Assembly: GCA_034231615.1 (NCBI GenBank)
Contig: CM067299.1
Coordinates: 16,164,834 to 16,228,833 of the forward strand
Length of the DNA: 64,000 nt
Direction of reading: 5' to 3'
From: Meghimatium bilineatum
Lineage: Eukaryota > Mollusca > Gastropoda > Stylommatophora > Philomycidae
Shown here: one piece after another, positions 2,470 through 58,300 of the stretch
Layout of the letters: every line of letters starts with the position of its first letter
How positions within the stretch are numbered: the stretch's first letter is position 1
Notes under the pieces: generated by a model
What the model was told of the DNA's origin: nothing
The model's database searches: none
The model's input: the letters and a program-made list of their open reading frames with translations, nothing else
Program-made: the position numbers and the translations under genes

Positions 2470-4100
2470 ACAAAACCACACCTACCAAGAAAAGCCATCA
2501 TTGGAGATAATGGAGCGATGCTCAATGAAAAAGAAGATACCGGTATAATGAAAAAGTTTGCAGAATATTGCAGAGATTTGTATAAATGTGAAGTGTCCAA
2601 GACTGTCAAGTATTCAAAGACATTTTGCTTAATAACAAAAGAAAATTAGGAAATGCAAAAATAATGAGGGAGGAAGTGTCAATTGAACTAGGATCATTGA
2701 AGGAAAATAAATCACCAGCTGTAGATAATTCCAGCAAAACTCCTAAAACATGCAGGAAAGGAGTTCATCAGTGTTATAACAGCCATCTGCCAGAGAAAAT
2801 ATGAAATAGAAAAACGTGGCCTAGAAAATGGACAATTATTAGTGATACTAATTCTTAAGAAAGGCAACAAAAAACTGTGCAAGAATTAAAGAAACTATTA
2901 CCGGGTAGTCCAATCACTCTTTCTAGCAAGATGATGCTAAAGATCATTCTCAACAGAATATATGTACAAGCTAAATCAGAGGAATTGTTAGCAGAAGAAC
3001 ATGCTAGTTTCCATAAACACAGAAGTACCACAGAACATATTTTTAACCTCAAAATTTTGATAGAAAAACATTTACAACATGAACGTGCATTGTGTCATAA
3101 GTTCATTGATTCCACAAATGCATTTGATCGTGTGTGGCACCAAGGTCTGTGGCAGATCATCATCAGGTGCCATACCGGCTGCCGTAGGCAATCATGGCTC
3201 TCCACAGCTCTATCTCCAGTATTGTGTATCAGGATCGTTGTTGCTTCCCTGCCGTGCTAGGTTGTTAAGCTGTCTAATATTCTCTCACGTTGGCACCCTC
3301 TGTTTCTGTTGCCTTAAATCTTGCCTGTTGTGACTATGTTCTCCAAACTTCCTTGTCTCATAACATAGCCAAACAATGAAGGTTGTTTTTTTCTTATATT
3401 ATTGATTAAACTCCGACTCACATTTGACTCGTTAAACAAATCCACATTAGTTTTCCTGGCAGTCCATGATGTTATCAGCATTCTTCTGTAGAACTACATC
3501 TCTACTGCCTATAATTTCCCACTTTCCTGTTTGTTTATTTTCCAAGACTCGCATCCATATGTTTGTGTAGAAGTTATATAGCACTGCAGAACTCTCTACC
3601 TCACCTTTAACGACAAGGTCATATTACACACTATTTTTCTGAATTAAGCTTTTACCTGCCCTATTATGTTTCTTATTTCTGTTGAACGTCTTCCATCTGC
3701 TTTAATCGTTGTACCTAAATATTTAAATTGGTGGACCTGTTTTAATGCTATATCGTTCACTTTGATCTTGCAAGTTGCGGTGTTTTGTTTCTTTAAAATA
3801 ACCATTACTTCTGTTGCTTTATTACTTTATTACTATGGCAAATACTGAGACATAACTTCGGAACATAGTCATAGAAGGTATTGAAGCGCTGTATAAAGAT
3901 ACAAGCAGTGCTATTTTCATAAACAATGATATTGGTGAATGGGTGCACAAGGGGTTCACAAGGCGCATGTGTGATTCTCAGGGCTAGCAGAAAACGGATC
4001 GTGTCCGTGGATGTGGCGAATGTAGATGAAATGAGAATTGACTGCAAAAATACATGCAATATCTCGAGCACATCTGCGCCAACGCAACCAGTGGCATCGT
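2470..4100 (+). pseudogene. Decayed LINE reverse transcriptase, split by a nested LINE (3158-3838)
   Basis: 2470-3157 reads AEYCRDLYK-like linker, then HASFHKHRSTTEHIFNLKIL and FIDSTNAFDRVWHQGLWQ. After the insert the frame resumes at about 3836 with WQILRHNFG, then VIEGIEALYKDTSSAIFI and NDIGEWVH. Frameshifts throughout. Confidence 0.7.
3158..3838 (-). mobile_element. 5'-truncated LINE, minus strand, nested in another LINE
   Basis: Read on the minus strand: YGCESWKINKQ, FYRRMLITSWTARKTNVDLF, LINNIRKK then a QRENI-type C-terminal block, ending in a GATGATGAT tail. The same 3' end occurs at 60040-60210. CTGTGGCAGA/CTATGGCAAA at the borders may be a decayed TSD. Confidence 0.7.
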
Positions 4101-7133: not shown

Positions 7134-10100
7134 CGGTATAATATAATTACGGGTACATAGGCGCTAACAGCAGAGCTGTGTGGACAGCATAGGGCACAGT
7201 TAGACACATAGTACGCTCTGGCCATCCACTGCACCTGATTTTCTCCCAGTTGTCTCGACTTTGTCTTGCCACTGGACCAAGATAAAACTCAGGAGAGAGA
7301 GTGTGGTTGACGATTAGCGCAACTCTTCCACACTATAAACCAACTTCAGCGCTAGTCATTTCTCAACCCATTTATTTATTTATCTTTATTAATTAAATAT
7401 GAAGAGAACAAAGTGTGAATCAATCCTAGTTGGTTCATGGAATGTTCGGACACTTACGGATATCTCAGATGTAAACAGACCAGAAAGAAGAACAGCACTA
7501 ATTGCTAAAGAATTGGCCCGTTATAATCTGGATATTGTTGCACTTAGTGAAACGCGGTTTGCAGATGAGGGTCAGTTGACAGAGAGAGGTGGAGGGTATA
7601 CATTCTTCTGGATAGGACGTAAAAACACAGAGAGGCGTGAATCAGGTGTTGGTTTTGCTATAAAATCATCTCTGGTGCAGAAACTTCCAGGTCTGCCTCG
7701 AGGAATTAGCGATCGCTTGATGTCGTTGCGATTGAAAGTGAGCAAAAATAACTTTGCCACATTACTTTCTGCATATGCGCCGACAATGACAAATCCTGAT
7801 GAGGAAAAGGATAAATTCTATGAAGAGTTAGATGCCGCTATATCTGGTACACCGAGAACTGATAAACTCATTATCCTGGGTGATTTCAATGCCCGAGTTG
7901 GCAAAGACTCCCAGACATGGCAAGGTGTTCTTGGACGTCATGGGATCGGTAAATGTAACAGCAATGGTTCCCTTCTTTTAAAGCTATGTTCTGTGCACGA
8001 ACTCACTATCACCAACACTATGTTTCGTTTGCCAACGCGCAAAAAGACCTCTTGGATGCATCCACGCTCCAAGCAGTGGCATCTTATAGACTATATCATA
8101 ACCAGAAAAAGGGACATCAAGGATGTTCGTGTCACAAAAGCAATGTGTGGAGCTGAATGCTGGACTGATCACCGGCTTATAGTATCCAAACTAAATTTCA
8201 CCATTGCAAGAAAAAGACGTCCACAGGGACAAAAGATAGAAAAACGCCTAAACACTGATCGGTTGAGTAACCACGATATAAAAAATAATCTCTCCAAGGA
8301 TCTCGACGTAGCCTTGGGAGACTTAGATCTTCTTAATACCACATCTGAAGATAGCTGGGCTTCGTTTAAAGGAATTATTTACGCCAAAGCGAAGGAACAT
8401 TTGGGAGTGAAGGTACATAGACACCAAGACTGGTTTGATGATAATAATTTTGAGATAACATCCTTGTTAGAAGAGAAACACAAAGCTTTCAAGAAACTAC
8501 AAGGGGCAGCATCTTCACCGTCCAAGAAAGTAGCCTATAACAAGATCCGTAACACTTGTCAAAAGAAGCTTAGAGAGATAAAGGATAAATGGCTAAGTCG
8601 AAAAGCTGAAGAAATTCAAATGTTTGCAGACAGAAAGGACTATAAACGATTCTATGAGGCTTTAAGAACTATCTATGGTCCACACTCATCGGGATCACCA
8701 CCTCTATTAAATGCCGATTCGTCGAAGCTTCTCACTGATAAAAATGACATCTTAAATCGTTGGGCTGAACATTTTGAAGAAATCCTAAACAAACCATCAG
8801 TAATAAATGAAGAAGTCATAAACAGAATACCACAACTTAGGATAAGAGAAGAACTCGATATACCCCCAAGCAGTCAAGAGGTTATGATAGCGATTAAACA
8901 AATGTCAAATGATAAAGCTCCAGGTTTGGATGCCTTACCTGCTGAAATTTATAAAAATGGCGGACCACTGCTGATTAAAAAACTAACTGACATTTTTGGT
9001 ATTTTCTGGAACTCAGGTACATTGCCTCAAGATCTAAAAGATGCTTCTATAGTGCACCTATATAAAGGCAAAGGTACCAAACAGTCTTGCGATAATCATA
9101 GGGGCATATCACTTTTGTCTATAGCTGGTAAAATTCTCGCTCGTGTCATACTCAACAGACTAAATAATTCTCTACTAAACGAGCTACTCCCAGAGAGTCA
9201 GTGCGGTTTTCGTGCAGGTCGTGGTACAGTTGATATGATATTCTCTGCACGACAAATTCAGGAAAAGTCACAAGAGCAACATAGTGAACTCTTAGCAACA
9301 TTTGTGGACTTAACTAAAGCATTCGATACCGTTAACAGAGAAGGACTGTGGAAGGTGCTTACAAAGTTCGGATGCCCCCCAAAACTTGTCACTGTGATAC
9401 GACAATTTCATGACGGTATGATGGCTAGTGTTATCTGCGACGGAGGAGTATCTCCTGCATTCCCTGTCACAAATGGTGTAAAGCAGGGATGTGTGCTGGC
9501 CCCTACTCTTTTCAGCCTGTTATTTACAGCCATGTTAACGGAAACACACTATAGTAATGAAACAGCAGGCATAATGATCAATTACAGAACGGATGGTGGT
9601 CTTTTCAATTTACGTCGTCTAAAAGCAAACACGAAAACTAAATCTAGTACTGTTAGAGAATTACTTTATGCTGACGACTGTGCATTGTATGCTGACTCTG
9701 TCGTAAACATGCAGAGCACCATAGACCGCTTCTCAAAGGCCTGCAACAACTTTGGTCTCACTATTAACACCAAAAAAATAGAAGTCATGCACCAAGCAAC
9801 ATCAAATAGCCAACATACTGCTACTTCCATCATCGTCAATAAGGAAAAACTGCAGGTAGTCGACAATTTTACTTACCTTGGAAGCACTCTCTCTCGCGAT
9901 GTCAACATTGATGTGGAAATTAACAATAGACTGGCAAAAGCTAGTGCTGTATTTGGCAGATTACGCAACAATGTATGGGACAGAAGAGGTATAAGAACAA
10001 CCCCCAAACTACAAGTATATCATGCTGCTGTTATACCAACCTTACTATACGCCTGCGAAACGTGGACAGTGTATGCTAGACATGCAAGAAAGTTAAATCA

Positions 10101-10689
10101 TTTCCATCTTACCTGCCTACGTAAATTACTAAACATCCATTGGTGGGACAAAGTACCAGACTACGAGGTCTTGGAAAAATCAACCTCAATAAGCATCCAC
10201 ACAATACTTATGAAGGCGCAGGCACGCTGGGCAGGCCATCTTGTGCGTATGGAGAACTCGCGATTGCCAAAACAAATATATTATGGAGAACTCAAGGCAG
10301 GATTTCGAAAAGCTGGTGGACAGAAAAAGCGTTTCAAAGACACGCTCAAGTCATCCTTGAAACATCTTAACATTGACGTAGGCGCTTGGGAGAGCCTCGC
10401 TCAGGATAGAGCAGCATGGCGTTACAGCATTAGAACGGGAGCACTAGCGGCAGAAGAATTCAGACAAGAAACTGCAAGACAGAAGCGGACACGTAGAAAA
10501 GAAAAAACATCTCAACCTCACACAGATACCTTCTATTGTTGTCAATTCTGTAAAAGAACATTTTGTGCGCGCATTGAACTTGCTAGTCATTTAAAAACGC
10601 ACTATTAACTTTATTATTTTATTATTTATTGTTATTATTATTATGGTTGAGTTTTTGGTCATCGTCGATCACGACGGACGAACATCATC
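7134..10689 (+). mobile_element. Full-length non-LTR retrotransposon (RTE-like / 'craniofacial development protein 2-like' type)
   Basis: Bounded by a perfect 11-bp direct repeat, AATATAAGGAA, at 7123-7133 and 10690-10700, so 3556 bp long. It has a ~265-bp 5' UTR, one intact ORF, and a short 3' UTR ending in ACATCATC. A perfect TSD, intact ORF and complete 5' end point to a recent insertion. Assignment to the RTE side of LINEs rests on the WNVRTL start and ATC-rich tail and is tentative. Confidence 0.88.
7399..10608 (+). CDS. LINE endonuclease/reverse transcriptase polyprotein, 1069 aa, intact
   Basis: N-terminal APE-type endonuclease: SWNVRTL at 13-19, catalytic-type SETRF with E51, GDFNARVG at 161-168, and DHR at 257-259. 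The central reverse transcriptase has NDKAPGLDALPAEIYK, QCGFRAGRGT, DLTKAFDTVNREGLW, GVKQGCVLAPTLFSL and the YADD active site at 757-760. At the C-terminus is a canonical C2H2 finger (C1048, C1051, H1064, H1068), followed by one residue and the stop. No frameshift or internal stop was found, so the enzyme could be active. The role is nicking target DNA and copying its own RNA at the nick. The first ATG follows an AT-rich leader and fits the family's MKRTK-like start. Confidence 0.93.
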   Translation: MKRTKCESILVGSWNVRTLTDISDVNRPERRTALIAKELARYNLDIVALSETRFADEGQLTERGGGYTFFWIGRKNTERRESGVGFAIKSSLVQKLPGLPRGISDRLMSLRLKVSKNNFATLLSAYAPTMTNPDEEKDKFYEELDAAISGTPRTDKLIILGDFNARVGKDSQTWQGVLGRHGIGKCNSNGSLLLKLCSVHELTITNTMFRLPTRKKTSWMHPRSKQWHLIDYIITRKRDIKDVRVTKAMCGAECWTDHRLIVSKLNFTIARKRRPQGQKIEKRLNTDRLSNHDIKNNLSKDLDVALGDLDLLNTTSEDSWASFKGIIYAKAKEHLGVKVHRHQDWFDDNNFEITSLLEEKHKAFKKLQGAASSPSKKVAYNKIRNTCQKKLREIKDKWLSRKAEEIQMFADRKDYKRFYEALRTIYGPHSSGSPPLLNADSSKLLTDKNDILNRWAEHFEEILNKPSVINEEVINRIPQLRIREELDIPPSSQEVMIAIKQMSNDKAPGLDALPAEIYKNGGPLLIKKLTDIFGIFWNSGTLPQDLKDASIVHLYKGKGTKQSCDNHRGISLLSIAGKILARVILNRLNNSLLNELLPESQCGFRAGRGTVDMIFSARQIQEKSQEQHSELLATFVDLTKAFDTVNREGLWKVLTKFGCPPKLVTVIRQFHDGMMASVICDGGVSPAFPVTNGVKQGCVLAPTLFSLLFTAMLTETHYSNETAGIMINYRTDGGLFNLRRLKANTKTKSSTVRELLYADDCALYADSVVNMQSTIDRFSKACNNFGLTINTKKIEVMHQATSNSQHTATSIIVNKEKLQVVDNFTYLGSTLSRDVNIDVEINNRLAKASAVFGRLRNNVWDRRGIRTTPKLQVYHAAVIPTLLYACETWTVYARHARKLNHFHLTCLRKLLNIHWWDKVPDYEVLEKSTSISIHTILMKAQARWAGHLVRMENSRLPKQIYYGELKAGFRKAGGQKKRFKDTLKSSLKHLNIDVGAWESLAQDRAAWRYSIRTGALAAEEFRQETARQKRTRRKEKTSQPHTDTFYCCQFCKRTFCARIELASHLKTHY

Positions 10690-20000: not shown

Positions 20001-23000
20001 ACTCGGGATGCATGTAGTTTGCTGGGTCTTTCTGTTGAAAGTCCACTTAGTGTGGGGTATGTTTCAAATGATTATGATTCAAGTGATTTATTCTTTCTGA
20101 AATGAGCACTTTTTTTTAACAGATGCTCTGAACTCCACAAATCTGAGCATGCTTTAAATATATTTTACATTATTTGGCAGTACTTTTTGCTATTGTTTTT
20201 CCTTAAATTTGAAAATTATATTTAGAAAGCTACTGTAAATACAATCAATATTTAATATAATCATAATTTAAGTATATTTTGTATAGAGTATTGATTGATT
20301 TTCAGCTATTGCTGGGTTTTCTCACTGTATTAACCTTTACGGCACTAATATTAATCATGTCACCCCCACACACACACACTCTGGATTCTTGTTCAATCGA
20401 TATATTCCAAGAAGATATTTCCAAACCTCAAACCCATTTACCATTTCATAACTGAACTAACATGCTCATGATGACGTCTGTGAAAATAAATAAAACACTT
20501 AGATATCACTAACCCTCTTGATCCAGTCTTGAACAGTAGATCTACGAATTTTTCTTAGACACACTTCACACATTAGAGTGATATATTCAATGTACGATGT
20601 ACACTCCTAATCAGAAACATAATCAGGAACCAGTTTTCTGAGGCACAGCTCAGACAAGTTTTACTATTGATTTCTCTTCCCCATCCCCCTCCCTCCAACA
20701 CTGCTTAAGCTGCAAAGTTTTTAGATGTAAAAAAAAGTGACGTGTTTGCGCAAGACCGTCACATGTAGAAGACCTCTGTTCAGAATTAATTAGGACTTCA
20801 TTCTTTATGTTTCTGATTATTGTCTTGGTCACTATTTATATACTTGGAGTCGCATGTTAAAAATAGTCAAGGCCGACCAACGACAAGCACGGAAATATTC
20901 AAAATCTGCCTTTGATCACCATAGACGGTCAGTAACTGTTGTAACATTTGCTTTACCAACAACATGAAGGTGTGTGACATAGAATTCCTTTGTTTAGACT
21001 ACTGGTAGTTTGTGTTTCCCCGGACTCAAACAAGACTAGACCTAGATGATAAACGTGTGTTACTGGTAGATCAGCTTAGGCTATTTCATTTGTTTTTTCA
21101 CAGACCATTTAATTGGGTTTTTTGTGTGTCTAAAAGGATTAATGCTGGATGCAAGGCTTTACCACCATTGCTGTCTATCAGACAAGTCATGCAATCGAGG
21201 CAGGTAGCAGGAGTTTGGAGCAGCAAGGAAGAATTACCAGTAAGTTGTTTTTCCCCTTTTTTACAATGTGGTGTATTTAATTTGGGGCTTTAGCTCAGTG
21301 GTTAGTGCTTCTTAGTCCATAGTTTCTAAAGTTCAATTTCCAGTTTAATTGGAAATATTTTTAAAATCACCGACGGTTTCTAGGTCTATCAATCCTAAGG
21401 AAATGGGCTCATGGTTTAATGCTGACCACATAATATCTAGGTTTACAGTTGGAAATGGGCACCGTGTCTCATGGTTTAATGCTGACCACATAATATCTAG
21501 GTTTACAGTTGGTCAATGAAAAATATGAACCTAACAATGTATTCCCCCCAATAAGGGAATTTTACTTATATTTAATTCATTGAGAGCAGCTCAATATTCC
21601 TTCCCTCTAAACTGAAAAAATACCATTTTTATTTTTGCACAACACATAGGATACATTACAGTTTACAGCACAGAATACATTTCTGGATCTCCTTTGGCAT
21701 AGTGGTTAAGCTGTATGCTTTGTGCTCAAGAGATTGCAGATTTGTCCCTCTCTTGTTTATAAAGTTGATATTTTTCGAGGATTCCTGAAAACCAGGTAGT
21801 GTGCCACTTCATTGCGAAGGACAAAGTACACCCGAGTATAATGAAATCAATCCTCTATGCTTTTTTTATACCTTTTTTAGCATATTTTTTTTATAGCATA
21901 GGATACAATATAGTTTTCACAAAAAATGTATATTTCTGTATGTTTTAATATAAATTGATCCGTATCTATCTATAAACCCGTAACCTTCCAGTCGTAGGAG
22001 TACAATATTGGATGTATCAACACACAGTCCTCCAGCAATTTCTATCTTCAATGATGCAGACGAGTGAGGAAAGATCTTGTCTTGATACTTGTCTGTCCAT
22101 GCTTTTATTTGTCATCCTCTCCTTCCACATTCGACTGGTTCCCTGCAATATTGATTTTGGCAAGGAATCATTTAAAACCATGCAAATTCTAAAACTTGAT
22201 GCTGAAAATATGATAATTCATCATCATTTGTCTATGTTAACTGTTATAGACAATCATGGACTTCTGTACTCAGGAGAAATGACTAAGTTTATTCTTTTCA
22301 TGCCACGAAGTTAGATGTTTTTAATGTATTGTTTTTGCCTCCTTTTGTTATTTCTGTTGCAAGTACTCAAAATGGGTGAAAAAAACAGTGGTACTTTTAT
22401 CAGTCATGTGTGATCAGCCATATATGTTCTAAGAGCAACTAATTAATGGAATGTGGGATTAACAACAGCAACCTGTTGAAAGTCAAAGGGGTCAAACAAT
22501 GCTATGCTTCTTCTTCTGCGTTCGTTCTCAAACTCCTGCAGATTAGCAGGATGTAGTCCGTAGAACGTTATGCACTGTCATGGTTTACAGCATTGCTGCG
22601 ATATATGTGCCTTTCGGCCTGACACATCCAACTTCAGCATGGCTTTGGGTCACTGACCCTATATGGGATGGGGCAGTTAACTCCATCCTATAACCTCCTT
22701 AGTCGCCTTTTACGACATGTGTGGAAGGTAAACAGTGTTGCTATTCTTTGCTCCCCTTTCGGGCCCTGGCAATACACGGGCAAATGCTATGCTGAAGTTT
22801 AATGATTGGGCAGAATGGCACAAATGGTGTCCAGTTTTCAATCACAATGCAACACATTCCATTCTCTGAACTACACAAATTAGGTCTGAGTTTGAACGTC
22901 TACCAGGGAAAGAGGACCTTTATCAAAGCTATTAGGAAAATCGGCAACTATCACTATCTTTAACAAGTTATCATCTTCTGTATCAAAGCAGGAAATAACA

Positions 23001-26000
23001 AACTGAATGGCCACTTAAATAGACTAAGACTGGTTCCATCATCTCTGTATCCATGTGGGCAGGCAACACAGACAGCATAACATATCCTGCAAGACTGCAT
23101 TACACTAAACTAGTTGAGGGAGGAGCACTGGCCCACAGAGATAGATATCTGTATGGGAGCCTTTAAGAGCTTTCAAATACAGCAGATTTATCAAGAAAAC
23201 TTGCTGTATAGACATTTTAAACAGTATGGGAGCCATGTGGAGATTTCAAATACAGCATCATTTACTGTTCATCTAAAGAAATGCAACGTTTTGGGATTTA
23301 CTTTTATAAAAGATATTCACTGATTTGACATCATTCAGACTATCTATTGTGTCCACCTGGTCATTAACTTCTCATGGTTACCTGAATTGTACTAACCTCA
23401 TTATTCGTGAGGGCATGAAAGAGATTCAAAGTCAAAACAACATTTTTGGCAATAACTTGTGATATGTTCATGAGAATCCCGTGAAACTTTCTGAACACAA
23501 AACTCTCAGAGCATATTATTGAATGCCTATAAAAGATTGACTGCCTCAAATAAATTCAGTTGAAAATTCAATGCGCAAGTATGGCTAATCTCACTACAGA
23601 ATAACGATACATCATAATTGTATATTTACAGACATAATAATCGTAAGAAGTAGTGGCCAGACAATTTAATGTAGTTAGAAGCATCATTAGTCTGGGAGCT
23701 TTCAAATAGAGCAGCATTTATTTAGAAAACTTGACTTGATGTGTAGACATGTTAAACTGCAAACAAGAAGAGAGTGAATGCAGATGACAAGAAGTATTTC
23801 TATTGCAAAGTTTACCCTCAATATGTTGCAATATTTATCTGAGTTTAGCTATTGCAAAGTTTACCCTCAATATGTTGCAATATTTATCTGATTTTAGCTA
23901 TTGCAAAGTTTACCCTCAATATGTTGCAATATTTATCTGATTTTAGCTATTGCAAAGTTTACCCTCAATATGTTGCAATATTTATCTGATTTTAGCTTTT
24001 GCAAAGTTTACCCTCAATATGTTGCAATATTTATCTGATTTTAGCTATTGCAAAGTTTACCCTCAATATCTTGCAATATTTATCTGAGTTTAGCTATTGC
24101 AGAGTTTACCCTCAATATGTTGCAATATTTATCTGATTTTAGCTATTGCAAAGTTTACCCTCAATATGTTGCAATATTTATCTGATTTTAGCTATTGCAA
24201 AGTTTACCCTCAATATGTTGCAATATTTATCTGATTTTAGCTTTTGCAAAGTTTACCCTCAATATGTTGCAATATTTATCTGATTTTAGCTATTCCAAAG
24301 TTTACCCTCAATATGTTGCAATATTTATCTGATTTTAGCTATTGCAAAGTTTACCCTCATTATGTTGCAATATTTATCTGATTTTAGCTATTGCAAAGTT
24401 TACCCTCAATATGTTGCAATATTTATCTGATTTTAGCTATTGCAAAGTTTACCCTCAATATGTTGCAATATTTATCTGATTTTAGGTTGAAATTGATTTG
24501 GGTCAAGACTACAGATTTCATTCTATCTTTGCTTGTCCCATTCTGAGGCAGCAAAGTACAGAGCAAAATCCTCCCATGAGGCTTGTTTGTGGCCATGTTA
24601 TTTCTAAAGACGCCTTACACAAGCTTGTTGTTGGAAATAGTAACAGGTAATTTCAGACATTGTGTAGGGCCCATACATCTGATAAAGTGCACCCATAACC
24701 TCTTTGACACAACATATTTCTCAATCCCCTATGCATATTCCCATTTTATAGAAGCTTAGTGACTCATTCTCCCATTTTATAGAGAGCAAAGTAGCTCATA
24801 CTCCAAATTTATAGAAGCTTATTGACTCACTCTCCCATTTTATAGACAGCAAAGTAGCTCATACTCCCATTTTATAGAAGCTTAGTGACTCACTCTCCCA
24901 TTTTATAGAGAGCAAAGATATTCATTCCCATTTTATATCCCTCTTCTGCCAAATATGGCATAAAATATTATTAGTAAGTTGAGCTAATTAGCAATATCTA
25001 AAGTAGACCAATACATGATTGCTAATTGTATGTGTCATGTGACGTATTCTTTCCAGAACGTTGACTTCCATGAACTCTCTGAACCTCTTTCTGTCTTGGG
25101 CGATGCAGCTTGCATATTCCGTTGTATTCATGTTATCTTTAATGTTGTCAGTCCATCGTCTTCTTGGTCTGCCCTTTCTCCTCTACCCAAGTACCAATAG
25201 AGTACCCAAGTACTCTACCCTCCGTTATTTGTCTTTCTAAACAGTTGTGTCTAATTGTATGATTGCTAATTGTAAGTAACAGAATATAAGGGTATGTTTG
25301 GTTTGATCTCCAGAAATAACGAACAATAGAGTTCTCATTTCGTATTGTGTAATGTAATGGAGAATTCTATATTCTAAATATCATTATCATTAAGTGCCGT
25401 TTCCACAATGAAGGGTGGCTGCAACTGATTTCTAACATCCTCTGTCACTCGCCTTGGTTGTGCACTGGTTGGTTGGTTGTCGTTTGCTGATCCAGAGCTC
25501 CATGGGCTCATGCCCTTTAACTCAATGCCATTGTGTGATATGTAAATGTGTTTGTGAGCTGTTGTTTTGTTCCATATAATGTGTTCCATTTATCTGGCCC
25601 TGGAGGGAGAAACATTTTCCTGATGTCATCCAGCGCTGGGCATTAAAAAAGGTGGTGTCAACAGTTTCATAGAGATGAGTACACAGCCGGCACCCTGGAG
25701 TGTGTTGTGGTTGTATTCTGTTCAGGTGCTTGTTAAGCTGTACATGTGTTCGCAGTCTGAAGATGATACTCTGTTCTTTCCTTCCCAGGAGGTTGATGTT
25801 GTCTTTAGGATTTGGGCTGGTCATATATTTATAGATTTCCCTCCCAGTGTTTCCCATGGCCAATAATACTGACTCATCTGATGTGTGGCAGCACCCCTGA
25901 TAAAATTCTTCAACATATCTAGGCCTATTGCATTTATGTTGTTTGATAACCAAACTAGCTTAATATTGCCTGTTAAAAGAAATAAAACACGTAGATATGA

Positions 26001-26437
26001 GATACCTTGTTGAATCCATTTTTCTCTAGGTCTAATATCTGTAGTCCATGTCAATATATTTCATATTCTGCCTATAATTGTCCGGTGTCATTTCATAATG
26101 AAACTAATGTATCACTCATTTCTATTTTGATAACAAACAGAAGTTCCCAAGAATTCTTCATCATCACATCTTGTAGTTACTCGTTGATAAATGAGTACAC
26201 AGAAGTGGGTGGTGGCCACCGCCGATAACTTGCTAAAGATTAATATTTTCCTCATACCATTGAACACACTTTTAGCCATTTCTTCTCTTCTTTTAACCTC
26301 TGTTTCACATCTATCATCATTTATTCTACATATGCTACAACAGTAACATGCAAATTGTGTTCAATCTTTGTAGGTTTAAATGCCCATACTGCCCAGTAGA
26401 GATGATGACAACAGATACAAGACAGATCTACTTTTGA
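10957..26437 (+). CDS. RMND5A: RMND5A-type subunit of the GID/CTLH E3 ubiquitin ligase, complete, 9 exons
   Basis: Exons: 10957-11092, 13412-13557, 14034-14171, 16828-16928, 18787-18953, 19891-20056, 21137-21239, 24486-24646 and 26374-26437. All introns are GT-AG and the phases agree; the sum is 1182 nt (393 aa plus TGA), close to the ~391 aa of vertebrate RMND5A. The protein has the family order: N-terminal helical part, LisH (about residues 113-140), CTLH/CRA helices (about 145-300) and a C-terminal degenerate RING with C336, C354-G-H356 and C376-P-Y-C379. Signature stretches are [20 protein letters not shown] and [11 protein letters not shown]. In known complexes RMND5A pairs with MAEA as the catalytic RING module and ubiquitinates cytosolic and nuclear substrates. 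The start codon begins [13 protein letters not shown], which matches the family N-terminus. An intact LINE ends 256 bp upstream. Identification is by recognition of the family, not by a search. Confidence 0.95.
12802..13072 (-). mobile_element. SINE-like family B element, full length, in RMND5A intron 1
   Basis: A perfect 12-bp TSD, GACTTAGATTTT (12790-12801 and 13073-13084), bounds 271 bp. On the minus strand it starts at GTGTTGCCAGGGCCCGAAAG and ends GAACGAACGCAGAAGA. I see no tRNA-type A and B boxes. Confidence 0.9.
13412..13557 (+). CDS. RMND5A: RMND5A exon 2 (to codon 94)
   Basis: The acceptor is a T-tract followed by CAG at 13409-13411 and the donor is GTGAGT at 13558. The split Lys codon joins exon 1 in frame. 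It ends with [11 protein letters not shown], the counterpart of the family's SVSRVGKAID segment. Confidence 0.93.
14034..14171 (+). CDS. RMND5A: RMND5A exon 3 (codons 95-140), LisH motif
   Basis: Phase 0 at both ends, with acceptor TTTTACAG and donor GTGAGA. Contains the LisH helix pair, [20 protein letters not shown]. Confidence 0.95.
15280..15365. repeat. Dispersed repeat, inverted partner of 62480-62545
   Basis: ATGGGTGGGCAGAATAACAA then AGAAACCTGTTGCAGGGGCC matches the reverse complement of the segment near 62485-62540. Nearby GTTCCAGCAGCCAT occurs at both 14805 and 62450. Family not recognised. Confidence 0.5.
16550..16765 (+). mobile_element. SINE-like family B element, decayed, RMND5A intron 3
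   Basis: GAAGCAAAGAATAG, AAAGTGACCCAGAAGTCATG, CAGATGTCACC, CATATCACAGCC, GTAAACTATGATATAACACA and the AATGAATCCAGAAGAAA end appear in family order. Confidence 0.75.
16828..16928 (+). CDS. RMND5A: RMND5A exon 4 (codons 141-174), start of CTLH
   Basis: Acceptor AATATAG, donor GTAAGTAG at 16929. Encodes [20 protein letters not shown], typical of the CTLH helix. Confidence 0.93.
18372..18446. repeat. Two-copy tandem duplication in RMND5A intron 4
   Basis: TTTTAATTAAATGCATTGAT followed by AATRTTACAT occurs twice in a row. Confidence 0.75.
18787..18953 (+). CDS. RMND5A: RMND5A exon 5 (codons 174-230), CTLH/CRA
   Basis: Acceptor TTGTAG, donor GTACAT at 18954. Encodes [17 protein letters not shown] and [16 protein letters not shown]. 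The first codon is completed from exon 4 (GA|A, Glu). Confidence 0.95.
19891..20056 (+). CDS. RMND5A: RMND5A exon 6 (codons 230-285), CRA
   Basis: Acceptor ATGATAG, donor GTATGT at 20057. Encodes [14 protein letters not shown] and [20 protein letters not shown], the most conserved block of the family. Confidence 0.96.
21137..21239 (+). CDS. RMND5A: RMND5A exon 7 (codons 285-319)
   Basis: Acceptor CTAAAAG (weak pyrimidine tract), donor GTAAGT at 21240. Encodes [18 protein letters not shown] and [10 protein letters not shown], matching the family's linker before the RING. The acceptor was chosen because it alone keeps phase with exon 6. Confidence 0.9.
21283..21345 (+). mobile_element. tRNA-derived SINE head, RMND5A intron 7
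   Basis: GCTTTAGCTCAGTGGTTAG resembles a tRNA 5' half with an A box, and AGTTCAATTTC is a decayed B box. Cloverleaf pairing is not kept, so not a working tRNA. Confidence 0.5.
21409..21512. repeat. Tandem duplication, 60-bp period, 2 copies
   Basis: TCATGGTTTAATGCTGACCA and the following 24 bp are identical at 21409-21452 and 21469-21512. Confidence 0.9.
21688..21890 (+). mobile_element. tRNA-derived SINE, decayed copy, RMND5A intron 7
   Basis: Contains TTTGGCATAGTGGTTAAGCTG (A-box region), CTTGTTTATAAAGTTGATAT and AATGAAATCAATCCTCTATGC, the same order as the better copy at 57452. Confidence 0.75.
22509..22782 (-). mobile_element. SINE-like family B element, full length, nested in an older B copy
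   Basis: An 11-bp TSD, AATGCTATGCT (22498-22508 and 22783-22793), bounds 274 bp. The flanks (GGGGTCAAACAATGCTATG and CTGAAGTTTAATG... to about 22895) read as an older, opposite-strand B element. Confidence 0.88.
22900..23215 (+). pseudogene. LINE C-terminal (CxxC-type) fragment, RMND5A intron 7
   Basis: Broken frames read [27 protein letters not shown], then a HILQDC-like stretch. Same block as the LINE pieces at 41305, 46335 and 46924. Confidence 0.6.
23801..24485. repeat. 49-bp satellite x14 ending exactly at the exon 8 splice acceptor of RMND5A
   Basis: The unit runs TATTGCAAAGTTTACCCTCA, ATATGTTGCAATATTTATCT, GATTTTAGC. 685 bp equals 14 x 49 minus one base: the last unit's TTTTAG is the splice acceptor and its final C is replaced by the first exon base. 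Units differ by only a few substitutions (GAGTTTAG in some, CTTTTGCAAAG in others). Confidence 0.97.
24486..24646 (+). CDS. RMND5A: RMND5A exon 8 (codons 320-373), first half of Gid-type RING
   Basis: Encodes [20 protein letters not shown] and [16 protein letters not shown]. The acceptor TTATCTGATTTTAG is the last unit of a 14-copy satellite (23801-24485). The donor is GTAATT at 24647. Confidence 0.95.
24735..24940. repeat. 63-bp tandem repeat, about 3 copies, RMND5A intron 8
   Basis: The unit contains AGAAGCTTAGTGACTCACTC, CCATTTTATAGAGAGCAAAG and TAGCTCATACTCCCATTTTAT. AGAAGC recurs at 24750, 24813 and 24876. Confidence 0.85.
25030..25195 (-). pseudogene. LINE reverse transcriptase C-terminal fragment, RMND5A intron 8
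   Basis: The minus strand reads [20 protein letters not shown] and [19 protein letters not shown]. Related minus-strand debris lies at 30245-30440 and 36285-36480. Confidence 0.65.
25375..25960 (-). pseudogene. Two LINE 3' fragments side by side, RMND5A intron 8
   Basis: 25522-25953 minus encodes [20 protein letters not shown] and a C-x2-C-like block of the RNase H-bearing LINE type. 25375-25500 is another LINE 3' end, [20 protein letters not shown] then an ATGATAATGATA tail, also seen at 60555-60640. Confidence 0.65.
26374..26437 (+). CDS. RMND5A: RMND5A exon 9 (last 20 codons and stop)
   Basis: Acceptor TTTGTAG. Encodes [20 protein letters not shown] and TGA. CPYC supplies the last RING cysteines, and the ending IYF matches the family's C-terminal IFF. 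Confidence 0.95.
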
Positions 26438-42549: not shown

Positions 42550-43881
42550 GTTTGTTTGTTTTTCGTTCGCTCCATTGTAACCATCACGGATATCCGTGCG
42601 ATTTCCGCCGGGAGCGTGATTACGTTGTGCCACCGTTATGCGCCTTGTAGGCCTAGCACATCCGATTTCGGCATGCCTTGACAATTCGGGTGTGCTACCC
42701 TTAGCCTGTGACAGCCTCTATATCTGTCTCCAGGCACGCGTAGTGGAGACTCTTCGCCCAGACGATGTTTTGCTCTCGTCTGACTCGAACGAGGTGTTCC
42801 ACTGTCTATGAACTTGCCTCGTATAATTGGACGTGCTGTGCCTGTGCCCATTGGGTACCGAACCGTTTCTCATCCGTGAGCCTGGTTCCTTAAGGGGAAG
42901 AACTCAACAGAGGAGTTGGACCCTGGCTCTTTCGCCCTCTTAGCCGAGGTGTCATTCACCGACATCGTGTACCCCTTGTCCAAGTTCGAGTCTCACACCA
43001 CGCGTTTGAGAGCAAGGCGTTCTCGAGCTGAGCGTCCTTGTCCCAATAGCGCCTGAGCCCATCAGGTACTGAACCCTTTCTCTCTTCAAGTGTATTTCCG
43101 GTGTAGGAAACTTGACAGTAGAGTTGGGCCAGGGCTAAATCGTTGTCCCTTTTGTGCCTGAGCGAATCGAGTACGGAACCCTTTCTCTCTGCAAGTGTAC
43201 TTCCGGTATAGGAAACCTTGACAGTAGAGTTGGGCCAGGACTACCATCGTTGTCCCTTTCTTGCCTAAGCCCATTGGGTACAGAACCCTTTCTCTTCGCG
43301 AGCATATTTCCGGTTTAGGAAGGCTCGACATTAGAGTTGGGTTAGGTCTTCTTGCTTTACCAAACGCCAGTGGATGGGTCTGGGTCTCTGCCTGTAAGGA
43401 ACTCAGGTAACTAGAAGCCCGTCTCGAGCTGACGGAGCTTGTAGCTCCCCCTTTCCTAGGGACTTTTCACTTTCTATTTGCAGTTCGCGCTGCCCTCTAG
43501 CGCTGTTCTGCCCTTTCATTGTTTCATTGTACTCTGTATGAAATATATTTGTCTCTCGCCATGCATCTACCTTTACGTGCATTTTACATTGGCCGCCCCT
43601 CCAATGTTCGGACTGGACTGACTAGCTTCACTGTATATCGACAGTGTCGCTATATGTGGTGCTGCTGGTGGTGTCGGAGATATTGTCTGTCTCTTGTGCA
43701 GTCAAATCTCTTTCCATCTGCTACCTCCACATTCTCGGACACGATCCCCAAATGATTTGGCCAGAATCAGCTCGAGCTGTTGTATTTCTGTTTCCAGGGT
43801 GCACCGCGTGGAGGTACATTTGGGATCTTGGTTATCTGCTAACCCTGGGTCCGCCTAGAGCAATGCGTTCCCTTTGCACCC
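42550..43881 (-). mobile_element. 1.33-kb non-coding retroposon (family C), nested in hAT element
   Basis: A perfect 12-bp TSD, CATTTTTTAAAT (42538-42549, 43882-43893), fixes both ends. On the minus strand it starts GGTGCAAAGGGAACGC and ends GGAGCGAACG followed by an A/C-rich (ACAAAC)n-like tail. More GC-rich than its surroundings. Longest frames are about 80 codons and resemble nothing I know. It carries about five ~106-bp repeats (42840-43360). Its last 110 bp equals the truncated copy at 56788. Confidence 0.85.
42840..43360. repeat. ~106-bp tandem repeats inside the family C retroposon
   Basis: GCCCATTGGGTAC-type starts at 42846, 43057, 43162 and 43269, spaced 211, 105 and 107 bp. A decayed copy fills the 211-bp gap. 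Each has GAACCCTTTCTCT, TTTCCGGT(G/A)TAGGAAA and AGAGTTGGGCCAGG. Confidence 0.85.
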
Positions 43882-44029: not shown

Positions 44030-45364
44030 CATCCTTAAGGAGAGTGACCAAAATGATCTGGTTCGTGGGTTTAACGAAAGTATCAAGAACGGTACTATCA
44101 ATGAAGAATGTCTGCACAGCTACTTATTGTCACGTAGGAATCCCAATAGAAACCACGGAACGTCAACGGATACCGAATAATAACGATACAGAACACCACG
44201 GGCAAACTCATTGAGAAAATAATTGCACACCATCTCGCTCAAGACCTGGAAGAGAACCGTATTTTTCCGGGCTACAGTTTCGCCTACATCGTATTCGAGG
44301 ACTTCCATGCTGGTCCGGAAACGTGTGCTGTCGCGATGGGCTTGAGATCTCTCATTTATTTTCCGAGCATATCTCACAGAATTCATATGTGGCATGCCCT
44401 TTCATATCTCAGGGTGAGTTCTGACATAGACTACTCACTAAACAGCGAGCTCCCTCGTGTGAAGGGAATCAGTATTAAGAGAGGCACATCGTGGATGGGT
44501 CGTGCAGAGGATACCGTTAAACAGATGTGCGCCCTCAAGGCATAACTCCTGGCGAGGTATGGATACCTATTCTTATAGTCTTTCAAGAGGCAGTCAGGAC
44601 CGCCATTACACTCAATAGGGAATGCTGGGAACACAGCCCCGTGAGCGTGGATGCTGAGATCAAGGCACTCATCTGCGAACATGCCGACGATACAGATATT
44701 GTGATTTACACGGACGAATCGGTCATCTGTCACCACCGATGTTCATGTGCCTTTACTGCCAGATCACACGGAAGAACAGTGCACGAAGCCAGTGGAACCT
44801 TTACCGCAACAACAAGCAGTCTCACAATGGAAGTGTTTGCCGTAACGCATGCACTTAACTGGCTGCAATCGCAAACGTATTCCCATGTGTACATACTAAG
44901 TGAATTCTCAATGAATGATTCAGAAAGTCAAAACAGGTGATGTACATAGGGGATGGGTAGAGTCATTAGAGAGAGCTAAAATGCGGGCGTCACTACGAAA
45001 ACTAGTCCTTATCTTTGTCCCTGGATACGTGGGTGTGGAGGGAAAGGAACGGGCCAGTGAATTAGCTAGCCACGCCACCATAACAGATGGTCAGTCTATG
45101 GACCGAGCGGGCATAATCATTGCTCTTCGTGAGTCCGCACAATCAAAGGATTTGGAGATTAATGAGCAAGACTCAATATCGAGAATGTGCGAATTGGGAG
45201 TGAAGATGAGTGTGGCCAGTAGAGAACCCCTGACAAAGATTTCAAAAAGAGCAGTGAACCAACATAGAACCGGAACCATCAGCCGTTATTCTCAGAGAGA
45301 TTTACTGAAGCGGGGATCTGAGCACTTATGGACATATCCGGTGTGCGAGGAGGATAATCAATAA
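44030..45364 (+). pseudogene. RNase H-bearing LINE, internally deleted and frameshifted
   Basis: 44160-44330 encodes a reverse transcriptase start (KLIEKIIAHHLAQDLEENRI-FPGY). A large deletion follows. From 44640 comes the RNase H domain: DIVIYTDESVI (family D), TTSSLTMEVFAVTHALNWLQ (family E), then VPGYVGVEGKERASELASHA. The end is GSEHLWTYPVCEEDN, a CxxC-like tail. The usual Asp near SEFS is lost, and the frame shifts between 44935 and 44915. Confidence 0.8.
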
Positions 45365-52368: not shown

Positions 52369-55300
52369 CCTCTCTCTCACAACCTCAACCCAACTCTAAT
52401 CGTAACCCACACCTTAAGACTATACATCCTCCCCAAACAAAAATATGCCTACTACATTAAAAAAAAGGTATATAATAAATGTAATATTTATGCTAACACT
52501 GCTTACCTTCCCCTACTTCATTTCATTAAATGATGTTGGCTGAGTTTTTGTCAAGCTTGTGGTGCGTTTCTTTAATAATGTAGGCCCCTCTTCCTGTATT
52601 GAAAGGATAATGTTTATTTCTTGGTACTTGCGCTAATGCTGATACTTTTAGCGAACTAAAATGAACTGACCACTTACAAAGAGTACTCTCACTGCATAGG
52701 TATATTTTCCATTGTTATTGTCTGTCAGATGTGCAGACTATTGTTGAAAAGTCTGATCATGTCACGTCTCGTCACTTTCCTCTCTTCTCGACAGCTTTTT
52801 GCATAAATCTAGACCCTGAAGTTCCTGCATGATAGCATGATTCAGTTGTTTCTTGAAAGTCTTCTTTTTAAACTGGTCCTAATTATGAACAGGCATGTCA
52901 CAGGAAAATATATAATCGTGAATCTATGTTGATAGCATTACAGACGGCATCATAAAGGTCAAGAAAATTTAATTGTGGTTAGCTTTGAAGTTTGCGATCA
53001 GCGTGTAGTACTGGGACCAGTTCTCTGTTATGGCTGGCCTACTAGCGATATGGGTACAGACTTCCACTGTTCAGTGGAGATGGTTAAAAACCATGAACAT
53101 ATCAGTTACCATAGCCGAAGTCAGATGTGTAGGCCATTGGCACAAATAGAACGTTTACAATGCATTTCTATTCTCTGGACTACATCCTGCTGGAAATCTA
53201 GTAGGACCATTGTTCTACTACAAATGTGATCTGGTGCAAGTTTGAGAATGATGCACCTTTTCAACATTTAAAAAAAAAAACATCAAAAAACATCAGCCTT
53301 CCATTTTTGCTTCAATAAGAAACATAAGATGAGTCTTCAATAAGATGGCTGGGTTAAGTCATCTGTCACTTATATAGCTGTCTCCTTCCTTATCTTTTAC
53401 TTGAGGATAAAGTCGAGGAGAGGCAAGCAAGTGGTGGACAGATATACAAATGGTAAACATCATGAAATGGACAGGTTACAGTTTAGTGCACCACCACGAC
53501 AAGATAAGGGATTGTTGGAGGTCCGTTACAAACCTTGTTACAGAAACAGCACTTGATGGTGATGACTTTATCCCAAGACCTTCCTCAAATGGTATCTAAT
53601 AAATGGTCTTCTTCATTGCTGTCCACACTGCTACAGATATTTCAGAACCCAGACTGAACTCCTCAGTCATCTGACTCACAAACAGCAAATCTGACATTTT
53701 TCAATGACATGCTCATCTTCGCTAGCGAAGACGAAACATTATCGAACGTCTCCTTACAGAATGTGCTTTTTCCCCCAAGTATATCTGTGCTCTCATTGTG
53801 TATGTTTCTGTGACATTTGATTAATGTTTCCAGTTCTGTGCATAACCCTCCTTATACTTTACAAATGCTTGCTATGGTTCGGTGAGCCTATTCTGCTTCA
53901 GAGCCTATTCATTCCTCTGTAATAGGGACCCAAGTATCAATGCAGTAATTTTTTTGTTCTGTGTTTCCTCATTTAAACAAAAATATTTTTTGTAAAATGT
54001 TATTTTAATGAAGTCTCAAATTTTAGATATAAAAAAAAATTAAACTCTGTTCTGTCTGAGTCTTTGTTCTGTCTTTCATGGTCCACAGCCTTATCAAGGC
54101 ACTTCAACACAAAACCGTCAGCTGCCAAAAAGAGCGGAACAATAGTACTGGGAACAGCCATAGCTGGGTTTACAGGTTATGGAGTCTACAAATACTTGGG
54201 CCATAATAAGGATGATTTGTTGAAGCATGTTCAAGAAGTTGTCGCATCACCTACCCTTACAGCAGCCTCTCCACCAAGTAGTCAACCATCTGTAAGCATT
54301 TTTGTAATGCATATTTCCCATCTCTGTTGAATAATGTGCTTTTTTGTTTAGTTCATATTAAATATATATAAAATGTTATAGAAATAGTTTTAAAATACAT
54401 TAACATTGACACGTATGGGCATCTTACTACTATATAGTACAGTGTATAAGCAAAGAGTTAAGAGAAACATTGATCTACTACTGAGGTAGGGGGATGTTTT
54501 ATTTACGAGGCGTGTTCAAATGAAAACGGGACTTGTTACACCACGCGTGATAGAGCGCACTGATATTGATGAAATTTTGCACTAGTAATGAGTATCCAAT
54601 AATTTACATACGGTCACGTGTTCATCTTCCCAGCATGCATATGTGCTGCAGAAGACTGTTAACAATATGGCGGGTGTGATTCCGAACCCGTCCAAAGTGA
54701 ATCAGCGTGCTGTGATCCAGTTTCTTTCATTTGAAGGATGTCAAGCAGTAGACATTCATCGGAGAATGAAGGCAGCATATGGTGACAAATGTTTGTCGAG
54801 GACCAGAGTGATGGAGTGGGTGCGTATGTTTAAAGACGGACGTGAGTTAACGGCAGATCTTGCACGGCCAGGTCAGGCGCATATTGTTGCAACAGAAGAA
54901 GCCATAGCCGTGCTTGATAAAGCAGTACTGACTGACCGTCGTCGGAGCATTCGTTCGCTTCCAGAAGAATTCCATATGTCAATTGGGACAGCCCACATGG
55001 TTGTTCGGAAGAAATTGAACTATCGGAAGGTGTGTTCACAGTGGGTCCCACGGATGTTGACTGACCACCATAAGGAAGAACGGATGGTGTGGAGTTTGAA
55101 CCACCTGATGCGTTACAACGCTCGTCCGCACGTCGCAAAAATTGTGCAGGAAACATTGGCAAAGAAGAATTGGGAAGTTCTTCATCACCCAGCCTATAGT
55201 CCCGATTTATCCCCGTGTGATTTCCATTTGTTCGGACCGTTGAAGAAAGCACTAAAGGGACAGCGATTCAACAGCGACGCAGACGTGAAGACAGCGGTGA

Positions 55301-58300
55301 CCACATGGTTCAGAGAACAGCCACGCAACTTTTTCTCGGACGGCATTCGACGTCTACCTAAACAGTGGGATGCTTGCCTAAATGCATACGGAGATTTTTT
55401 CTGATGAACCCAGGTGCATTCTTATTCACAAGTGGTTGCTTTGTTCAATTCCGTTGAAAATATTAAATTGCGTATGATACTTTTTAAATAAATCCACAAG
55501 TCCCGTTTTCATTTGAACACGCCTCGTAAATGATATACCGGTACGTCATTTGGTTATACACACACACTGAAATATAACAGAAATAGGCTTACCTGTACAT
55601 TTTGAGAGTTGCTGCATTCAACACAAAACTAATTCAAATTCTTAAAAACTAGAATCAGCGTCTGAATTCCTATACCATTATTGGAATTGATCCTCTGTCA
55701 ATGGAGTACTGTTTGTCATCAGAAGACATCCACTAAATCAGTTTGTCCTAAAGTCTGTTCTTAAATGGTTTGTTGACCTGTGGCATTATTTTTCTACTGT
55801 GTGCTATATACACTGTTTGGTTTAGGTATGTTGATTGTCATCTTCGCACGACAGACATGTCCATTGGTACTCAGATCTTTGCTTCAGTAAATCTCTCAGA
55901 ATGTATAGGGTAATTGACACTGACATTCTGTTCAGTGTTAGTTGTGTGTTAGTTTTTAAATTTTTGTGATGTGTTCTCTCCTTGCTACACCAATCCTCAC
56001 TCCCAATTCATGCATTCTCAATATTGACTCATGTTCATTGATCTCAAAATCCTCCAATTGTGCAGACTCTCATAGAGCATTGAGTACGGTACGGTATGTC
56101 TGCTCTATTCATAGGTTGACCACTTGTTAGTAGAACCAGCCAACTTGTTGGCTCACTCATTTCCCTCCACACCTGTGTGTCCAGACGCAAAGATGAAAGT
56201 GATTTTATGAATCATAGTATGCATGCATGAGGATAGGCTTGCGATTCCAGCCAGTTTAGGGCATTCATTACAGCAAATACCTCCATTGTTGACTACTTTT
56301 TGCTGCAGCAAAGGTCCCACTTGCATCGTGAACTATTCTTCCATGTGATCTGGTGGAAAGATCTGCACGGTCACATGCATGTTTGTGACGGATGACTGAT
56401 CCATCTGTGTAAATCACATCTATGTCATGAACATGTTAGCAGATGAGTACCTTGAACTCAGTGTCAACACTCTCAGAATTATGATCTCTGTGCTCTTTAT
56501 TGAATATAATGATGGCCTTTTAAACCCCTGGAAAATTGTTGCGACAGGTGTACATTCCTCACCTATGTACACATTTTTTGCCGCTGATAATCACATAAAG
56601 AAATAGAAAAGTAAAGTATTCTTACTCTGCTTATACACCGGTCTGCTTATACACCGGTCTGCTTATACACCAGTCTGCTTATACACCGGTCTGCTTATGC
56701 ACCGGTCTGCTTATACACTATAATATACAGTAATAAATCATCACAAAGCCATATGCTAATGATTGTTTGCTCATTTTCACTCTAGTTGCCGAAATCGGAT
56801 GTGCTAGGCCTACAAGGCGCATAACGGTGGCACAACGTAATCACGCTCCCGGCGTAAATCGCACGGATATCCGTGATGGTTACAATGGAGCGAACGCAAA
56901 ACAAACAAACAAACATTCACTCTAGTTATCACTAGTATTTTTCTTCTTCTTCAGCGTTCATTCTCAAACTCCCGCTGGATCTCTTGTAGCAGGACAATGG
57001 TCCTACTAGATTTCCAGCAGGATGTAGTCCAGAGAATGGAAAAGCATAGTGTCGCCGTTTAATTTGTGCCAATGGCCCGACACATCCGTCTTCGACAGAA
57101 TCTCTAGTATAACAACACAGATGCTTTTGCAGATTTAACTCTATGTTGTGCTACCATATACAGCACAGGTGTGCTATTTTGAAAATCTCAGCCTAGCACA
57201 TCGGAATCCAATATAGGACACCACATTAGTATTGAGTTTGCCAAATAGTGCATGTCCCAAACATATCCCTTAAATACTGACATTTTTATCTCTGGAAGTT
57301 CATTTTTAGATAAGGAAGCGCTCTTCAGTAAAGTGGGACATGGATTGCTTACTTATTCTTAGGTGATACCTCTGTAAAGAAATCTTGTGATCCAAGATTG
57401 AGTCTCAGCAATTGTAGTGACACATATATCACACTTTTTTGGGGGGTGGGGGGATCTCCCTGGCATAGTGGTTAAGCTGTTTACCTTGTGTTCAAGAGGT
57501 CACGGGTTCGAATCCGGCTCGTGTCATCTTGTTTATAAGGTGGATTTTTTTCGGAGATCCCTGTGGATTATCACTTGAAGCTACGGAGTTACGTGTTATG
57601 AGTGGTACTCTCGGCAGACGGCGTGCCGCTTCGTTGAGATGGGCGGAGTACATATGGGAAACCGAGTATAGTGAAGTCAATCTTCTACGGCTTTTAAACC
57701 CTTTTTTTGTAATATCACACTTTTTATTTTACTGGAAGCATGTTATATTGAGAGAGCATTGCTTGAAGTATTTGGTTGGTTGCTTCTGCTTCCACTCACT
57801 TTCATCAGATTTTGTACATGCCTCAAGCACCATCCTACAACACAGAAATAGAGATGACAGAGATTAGACTGAGAGATTAGACGCAGGCAGTGGCTATCTG
57901 ACATATTCATTCAGGTCACTGTCAATGTGTGTTCCTTCAGCTGATAATAAGCTGCTTTTGGATGTGGTGCTGAGAAATGCTACTTGTCTTGTGATACATA
58001 CAAATCTTCTTTACTAATCAACATCTGCAGTTTGCTCTTGATCCCTAAGCATCGGGGTGGACAAATATGTAGTGTCTGGGCTGGATGTTGCGCTTACAGG
58101 ACAAGGATTGTGATGTGAATCTAGTCTCTCACAATCGAGGTGCAGCTGATGCTGCAGAAGCTGCTGTCCTGTCTGATATTAAACTTCTAGCATATATCCT
58201 CTCATGCTCAAACATATATCCTCTCATGCTCAAACATATATCCTCTCATGCACAAACATATATCCTCTCATGCACAAACATATATCCTCTCATCCACAAA

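What the first reader, a model, noticed from the sequence alone, without database searches (positions are those of the whole stretch)
23801..24485. A 14-copy satellite that contains, and ends on, a functional splice acceptor
RMND5A intron 7 ends in 14 units of 49 bp. The 3' end of every unit, TTATCTGA(T/G)TTTAG, equals the real acceptor of exon 8; only the last is followed by the exon. The simplest history is that the acceptor region itself was tandemly duplicated backwards into the intron, giving 13 decoy acceptors at 49-bp spacing. Use of a decoy adds n x 49 nt to the mRNA, in frame only when n is a multiple of 3. Copy-number change could tune splicing of a ubiquitin-ligase RING exon.
Basis: partly seen in the sequence, partly recalled or inferred. 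Interest (0 to 1): 0.8.

Follow-up and report, generated by a model that had tools for sequence, protein, structure and literature searches.

The report
Repeat array ending in splice site
In one animal's RMND5A gene, the last 49 letters of an intron, including its splice signal, are copied 14 times in a row; similar arrays are known from lancelets and from a human gene linked to Alzheimer's disease, so this is a neat new example, and nothing here shows that it changes splicing.

Summary
Window 23800-24485 is exactly 14.0 units of 49 bp (8 mismatches to consensus in 686 bp). Its last base is the last base of RMND5A intron 7 in a nine-exon, 393-aa gene model. All 14 units carry a branch-point-like TTTAC at -35 and the same terminal acceptor, with one base changed in units 1 and 6. 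Most likely the 49-bp intron end was duplicated, recently, into 13 decoys.

All 13 decoys give a premature TGA: n=1 and 2 in exon 8, n=3-13 in the third unit (codon 47), so multiples of three are not harmless. The stops end 100-657 nt before the exon 8/9 junction and are predicted NMD targets. Decoys are followed by C; exons 2-9 all begin with a purine. An RNA-caging idea failed when tested.

Best reading: a near-neutral splice-site minisatellite whose last acceptor wins through exon 8. Precedents: lancelet 'mirages', and human ABCA7, whose VNTR begins with the exon 18 donor. This one is acceptor-side and contains no exon sequence. Species, copy-number variation and RNA use could not be tested.

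The parts
23800..24485 (+). 14 x 49-bp array at the 3' end of RMND5A intron 7
   Evidence: TRF; unit alignment
24437..24485 (+). unit 14, whose terminal AG is the acceptor joined to exon 8 in the gene model
   Evidence: no transcript seen
23800..24436 (+). units 1-13, each ending in a decoy acceptor followed by C; units 1 and 6 have a further AG at unit position 43, shortly before the terminal AG
24448..24452 (+). branch-point-like TTTAC of unit 14, A at -35; the only YTNAY of the unit at usual branch distance (others at -12 and -7); present in 14 of 14 units
   Evidence: motif consensus and usual distance recalled
24438..24470 (+). 8-bp inverted repeat TATTGCAA/TTGCAATA with a 17-nt loop holding the branch motif (perfect in 10 of 14 units)
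   Evidence: fold not better than many shuffles, z -1.24
23800..24044 (+). units 1-5, possible source of a five-unit duplication (shared variants with units 6-10)
   Evidence: equal lag by chance 0.11
24045..24289 (+). units 6-10, possible copy of units 1-5 plus private changes in units 6 and 7
   Evidence: chance 0.11
21240..24485 (+). RMND5A intron 7, 3246 nt, phase 0, longest of the gene's 8 introns
21137..21239 (+). RMND5A exon 7
24486..24646 (+). RMND5A exon 8 (161 nt, carries most of the RING-like domain)
26374..26437 (+). RMND5A exon 9 with stop codon

Best explanation
A splice-site minisatellite. The last 49 bp of intron 7 (branch-like motif, modest pyrimidine tract, AG) were tandemly duplicated upstream and amplified recently to 14 copies by slippage or unequal exchange. 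Shown: the units share the same acceptor-like sequence, the array stops exactly at the exon, and every decoy product would be truncated. Inferred: the spliceosome mostly uses the last unit because only it abuts exon 8 (exon signals, G at +1, downstream donor). Inferred: a branch point in unit 14 has only the true AG between it and the exon. Inferred: the few decoy products are removed by NMD, so the array is close to neutral and free to vary in copy number.
For: Array and exact edge. Unit architecture: TTTAC at -35 in 14 of 14 units, and 36 AG-free nt before the true AG. Base after the terminal AG is C in 13 of 13 decoys, G at the true site and a purine in exons 2-9, 8 of 8. All 13 decoys yield a TGA 100-657 nt before the exon 8/9 junction. 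Low divergence (8 of 686 bases) with both edge units near consensus suggests recent expansion. Precedents: lancelet 'mirages' with regular splicing; ABCA7 VNTR starting with the exon 18 donor, where retention of one unit is about 2% of transcripts and PTC transcripts rise under cycloheximide. The linear-search rule from branch point to first AG is described in PMC1431707 (passages).
Against: No RNA, second individual or related species could be examined. Locally 11 of 13 decoys are identical to the true site over the last 20 bases. The sequence after a decoy is not clearly less exon-like than exon 8 by trinucleotide score (-0.20 against -0.07; 62% and 28% of 2400 random intron 49-mers score at least as high), so the exon-definition step has little sequence support of its own. 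Predicted structure does not favour the last AG either; if anything it is less exposed than most decoys. A classic result, recalled and not seen here (Reed and Maniatis 1986), is that the intron-proximal of two duplicated acceptors can win when exon context is equal.
Confidence: 0.72

Rival explanations
1. Poison acceptor ladder: decoys are used often, each producing an NMD target, so copy number sets the productive fraction of RMND5A mRNA.
For: The units are nearly identical acceptor-like sequences, and every decoy gives a stop codon far from the last junction. In ABCA7, VNTR length correlates with lower expression and with exon 19 skipping.
Against: Decoys are followed by C where exons 2-9 of the gene model start with a purine. 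Lancelet reports find regular splicing. In ABCA7 the unit-retention isoform was about 2% and did not change with array length.
Confidence: 0.12
2. Array first, acceptor later: a minisatellite grew inside the intron and a deletion then brought its AG against exon 8, replacing the old acceptor.
For: Each unit is a ready-made acceptor-like sequence.
Against: The deletion would have to join the AG to the first exon base exactly, while simple duplication of the existing acceptor region keeps the working join as it was (inference).
Confidence: 0.06
3. The extra copies supply spare branch points and U2-binding sites that help splicing of the gene's longest intron.
For: 14 copies of the branch-like motif; intron 7 is 3246 nt, the longest of 8.
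Against: Branch points in units 1-13 meet their own decoy AG first under the linear-search rule (PMC1431707). Introns 1 and 3 (2319 and 2656 nt) have no copies of their acceptors nearby.
Confidence: 0.05
4. Copy number or structure is an assembly artefact.
For: Near-identical repeats are often mis-assembled (general knowledge), and no reads could be checked.
Against: 7 of 14 units carry variants, and a 686-bp array is short enough for single long reads. The exact count stays uncertain.
Confidence: 0.05

Closest known systems
Amphioxus 'mirage' minisatellites (Adh3, globin BflGb6 and BflGb9, troponin C; similar repeats in PGBD5; PMC3087553 and PMC3902484, passages read)
   Same: Tandem copies of a splice-site region at its own intron/exon boundary, many holding decoy splice signals; copy number differs between haplotypes or assemblies; said not to disturb regular splicing. 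In PGBD5 the first repeat immediately abuts a 5' splice site.
   Different: The globin and PGBD5 repeats overlap exon sequence; here the unit stops at the AG. The Adh3 paper is not held, so I do not know whether its units are exon-free. Whether this window is from a lancelet is unknown.
Human ABCA7 intron 18 VNTR (PMC5954066, passages read)
   Same: Array edge coincides exactly with an exon, and the end unit supplies the canonical splice site. Splicing at the next unit adds one unit and shifts the frame.
   Different: Donor side, 25-bp unit in a C-rich region, proven length variation and link to exon skipping; here acceptor side, 49-bp AT-rich unit, no population or RNA data.
Intron gain by tandem duplication across an intron-exon boundary (potato RdRp, PMC4974935, passages read)
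   Same: Tandem duplication copies branch site, pyrimidine tract and acceptor.
   Different: There exon sequence was included and a new intron arose; here no exon sequence is copied and no new intron is implied.

Membership tests
Amphioxus mirage minisatellite | tandem repeats that span an exon-intron boundary (wording of PMC3087553) | tested here: not met
   array ends on the last intron base and contains no exon sequence
Amphioxus mirage minisatellite | repeat units contain splice signals at an intron border | tested here: met
   14 of 14 units end in the acceptor sequence, 2 with one base changed
Amphioxus mirage minisatellite | regular splicing despite decoys; length instability | not testable with these tools
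   no RNA or second haplotype available; no genome is held for the window
Intronic VNTR whose end unit is the canonical splice site (ABCA7 type) | array edge coincides with the exon border and supplies the splice dinucleotide | tested here: met
   right edge = acceptor AG; acceptor side here, donor side in ABCA7
Intronic VNTR whose end unit is the canonical splice site (ABCA7 type) | copy number varies between individuals and alters splicing | not testable with these tools
   single sequence only
RMND5A | CTLH/CRA and RING-like domains, sequence similarity to human RMND5A | tested here: met
   Pfam CTLH 1.5e-39, zf-RING_UBOX 9.4e-07; 202 of 390 aligned residues identical to the recalled human protein

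The most novel reading that the evidence does not exclude
A copy-number-tunable acceptor ladder: 13 decoy acceptors, each giving only NMD-bound mRNA, so that array length sets RMND5A output. A bolder form concerns origin: the nucleotide-exact edge at the 3' splice site, with no shared base at the junction, could reflect duplication templated by a spliced-out intron end rather than by DNA slippage.
Probability: 0.1. Interest if true: 0.65.

Novelty: new variant of a known kind. Interest (0 to 1): 0.4.

Why it matters
It is a natural test bed for how the spliceosome chooses among 14 nearly identical acceptors that differ in exon context. Together with ABCA7 and lancelet PGBD5 it raises the question whether minisatellites tend to stop exactly at exon borders, which could be tested across genomes. 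If decoys were used, it would be a length-variable dial on a CTLH ubiquitin-ligase subunit.

Tried and rejected
RNA caging: interior units can pair with the next unit (TTGCAATA/TATTGCAA around the AG), which the last unit cannot, so I asked whether the last AG is more exposed. It is not: its mean unpaired probability is 0.23, 0.13 and 0.29 in three window settings, against 0.14-0.32, 0.16-0.45 and 0.29-0.50 for the 13 decoys. Single folds are unremarkable: one unit z -1.24 (23 of 200 shuffles fold as well), two units z -1.66 (13 of 200), array end with exon start z -1.12 (28 of 200).

Rfam: no match at gathering scores in the whole window. No tRNA by ARAGORN with the bacterial code. Exact 33-base unit pattern: 0 matches in viral contigs and 0 in genome contigs; these are collections of viral and prokaryote sequence, so this says little. 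The host species could not be named: GC 37.5%, CpG o/e 0.49, 52% identity to human RMND5A.

A five-unit block duplication (variants shared by units 1/6 and 5/10) is plausible but not significant: two shared pairs have equal lag by chance in 11% of trials.

The Cañestro 2002 and Zhuo 2007 papers on mirages and human tandem-array introns are not held and were not read. No title or abstract start in those listings announced an acceptor-side, exon-free array, but I read only listings and passages, one search listed 12 of its 19 papers, and the library lacks most subscription journals, so such an array may well be in print. A passage search in PMC8724738 for duplicated splice sites gave nothing of use.

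Full report
Observation. Window 23800-24485 is a 49-bp tandem array of exactly 14.0 copies, without indels. Eight bases of 686 differ from consensus; units 2, 3, 4, 8, 9, 13 and 14 are perfect. Neither flank continues the repeat by one base, so both edges are unambiguous. The right edge is the last base of RMND5A intron 7.

Gene. Exon 8 matches human RMND5A in the PDB (8pjn_b, 9.8e-20). tblastn with the recalled human protein placed the exons, and exact borders were set by eye on GT/AG. The nine joined exons give 1182 nt and 393 aa without an internal stop, with CTLH and RING_UBOX domains. No transcript was available. Intron 7 is phase 0 and 3246 nt long.

What a unit holds. The only YTNAY motif at usual branch distance is TTTAC with its A at -35; the others lie at -12 and -7. 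It is intact in 14 of 14 units. In unit 14, 36 AG-free nt lie between the inner AG (positions 10-11) and the terminal AG. Units 1 and 6 have an extra AG at position 43, made by their T-to-G change at position 44, and unit 7 one at position 8, so '13 decoys' counts terminal AGs only. The pyrimidine fraction at -20 to -4 is 0.65, low but within the range of the gene's eight acceptors, 0.59-0.82. Each unit is therefore a complete-looking but modest acceptor. The consistent local difference between decoys and the true site is on the exon side: C follows in 13 of 13 decoys, G at the true site, and exons 2-9 begin with A or G in 8 of 8.

Chance. With the gene's four arrays placed at random along the gene, a right edge hits an acceptor's last base with probability 0.0021, and any edge touches any junction with probability 0.016. 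This is a post hoc test on one gene. None of the other 15 junctions has a copy of its 20-mer with up to 3 mismatches within 2 kb.

Consequence of decoy use. I translated exon 8 preceded by n units for all 13 decoys. n=1 stops at codon 18 and n=2 at codon 53; both are frameshifts with the stop in exon 8. For n=3 to 13 the frame meets TGA at codon 47, in the third unit, every time (one search counts codons from zero). The stops end 100 to 657 nt before the exon 8/9 junction, all beyond the 50-55 nt NMD rule (recalled; whether this animal follows it is unknown).

History. The simplest history is duplication of the 49-bp intron end, then amplification. Low divergence and intact edge units suggest a recent burst. 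Units 1/6 and 5/10 share variants at the same lag, which suggests a five-unit block copy, but chance gives equal lag in 11% of trials.

Mechanism. My reading is that exon 8 decides: its neighbouring acceptor is defined with the exon, and a branch point in unit 14 has only one AG ahead of it before the exon. [quoted passage not shown] A trinucleotide score gave only a weak difference between exon 8 and the sequence after decoys, and an RNA-structure explanation failed. So the choice of the last site is inferred, not shown.

Known kinds. PMC3087553 (passages) describes minisatellite-like duplications of intron-exon boundaries in amphioxus globin genes, called mirages, earlier seen in Adh3 with units of 10-72 bp. 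It says that they do not seem to interfere with regular splicing, although many repeats hold AG/GT signals that could be used, and that clusters vary in length. PMC3902484 (passages) reports similar repeats overlapping exons of lancelet PGBD5, the first of them abutting 5' splice sites, with copy numbers that differ between two assemblies. PMC5954066 (passages) describes the human ABCA7 VNTR: 25-bp units, the first GT of the array being the exon 18 donor, retention of one unit at about 2% with a frameshift, not changed by array length, and exon 19 skipping rising with array length. The present array is the acceptor-side counterpart without exon sequence. By the wording 'spanning an exon-intron boundary' it is not a mirage; it looks and may work like one.

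Limits. The species, its relatives, other individuals and RNA are all out of reach: no genome is held for this window. Interest is set at 0.4: real, well-formed and testable, but with direct precedents. On checking I corrected the codon number of the common stop (47, not 46) and added the extra AGs; neither changes the odds.

Noticed in passing
7393-10605 (+): Open 1071-aa frame with endonuclease/exonuclease/phosphatase and reverse transcriptase domains, a LINE-type element with an undisrupted frame, 348 bp upstream of the RMND5A start codon.
   Followed up: partly
24734-24937: A second minisatellite (63-bp unit, 3.3 copies) in intron 8, 87 nt after exon 8, with repeated TTTTATAG motifs. It does not touch a splice site of the gene model.
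   Followed up: no
58191-59292: Two neighbouring arrays, 22 bp x 7.1 and 33 bp x 22.5, inside a 381-aa stop-free frame 58191-59336; gene context unknown.
   Followed up: no
54592-55401 (+): Mariner-like transposase remnant: DDE_3 and HTH_48 matches below the Pfam cut-offs.
   Followed up: no
2859-3257 (+) and 44521-44937 (+): Fragments resembling reverse transcriptase and RNase H, both below the Pfam cut-offs.
   Followed up: no
1915-2208 and 43051-43341: Further minisatellites (51 bp x 5.6; 107 bp x 2.7); the window gave 21 TRF rows, some overlapping.
   Followed up: no
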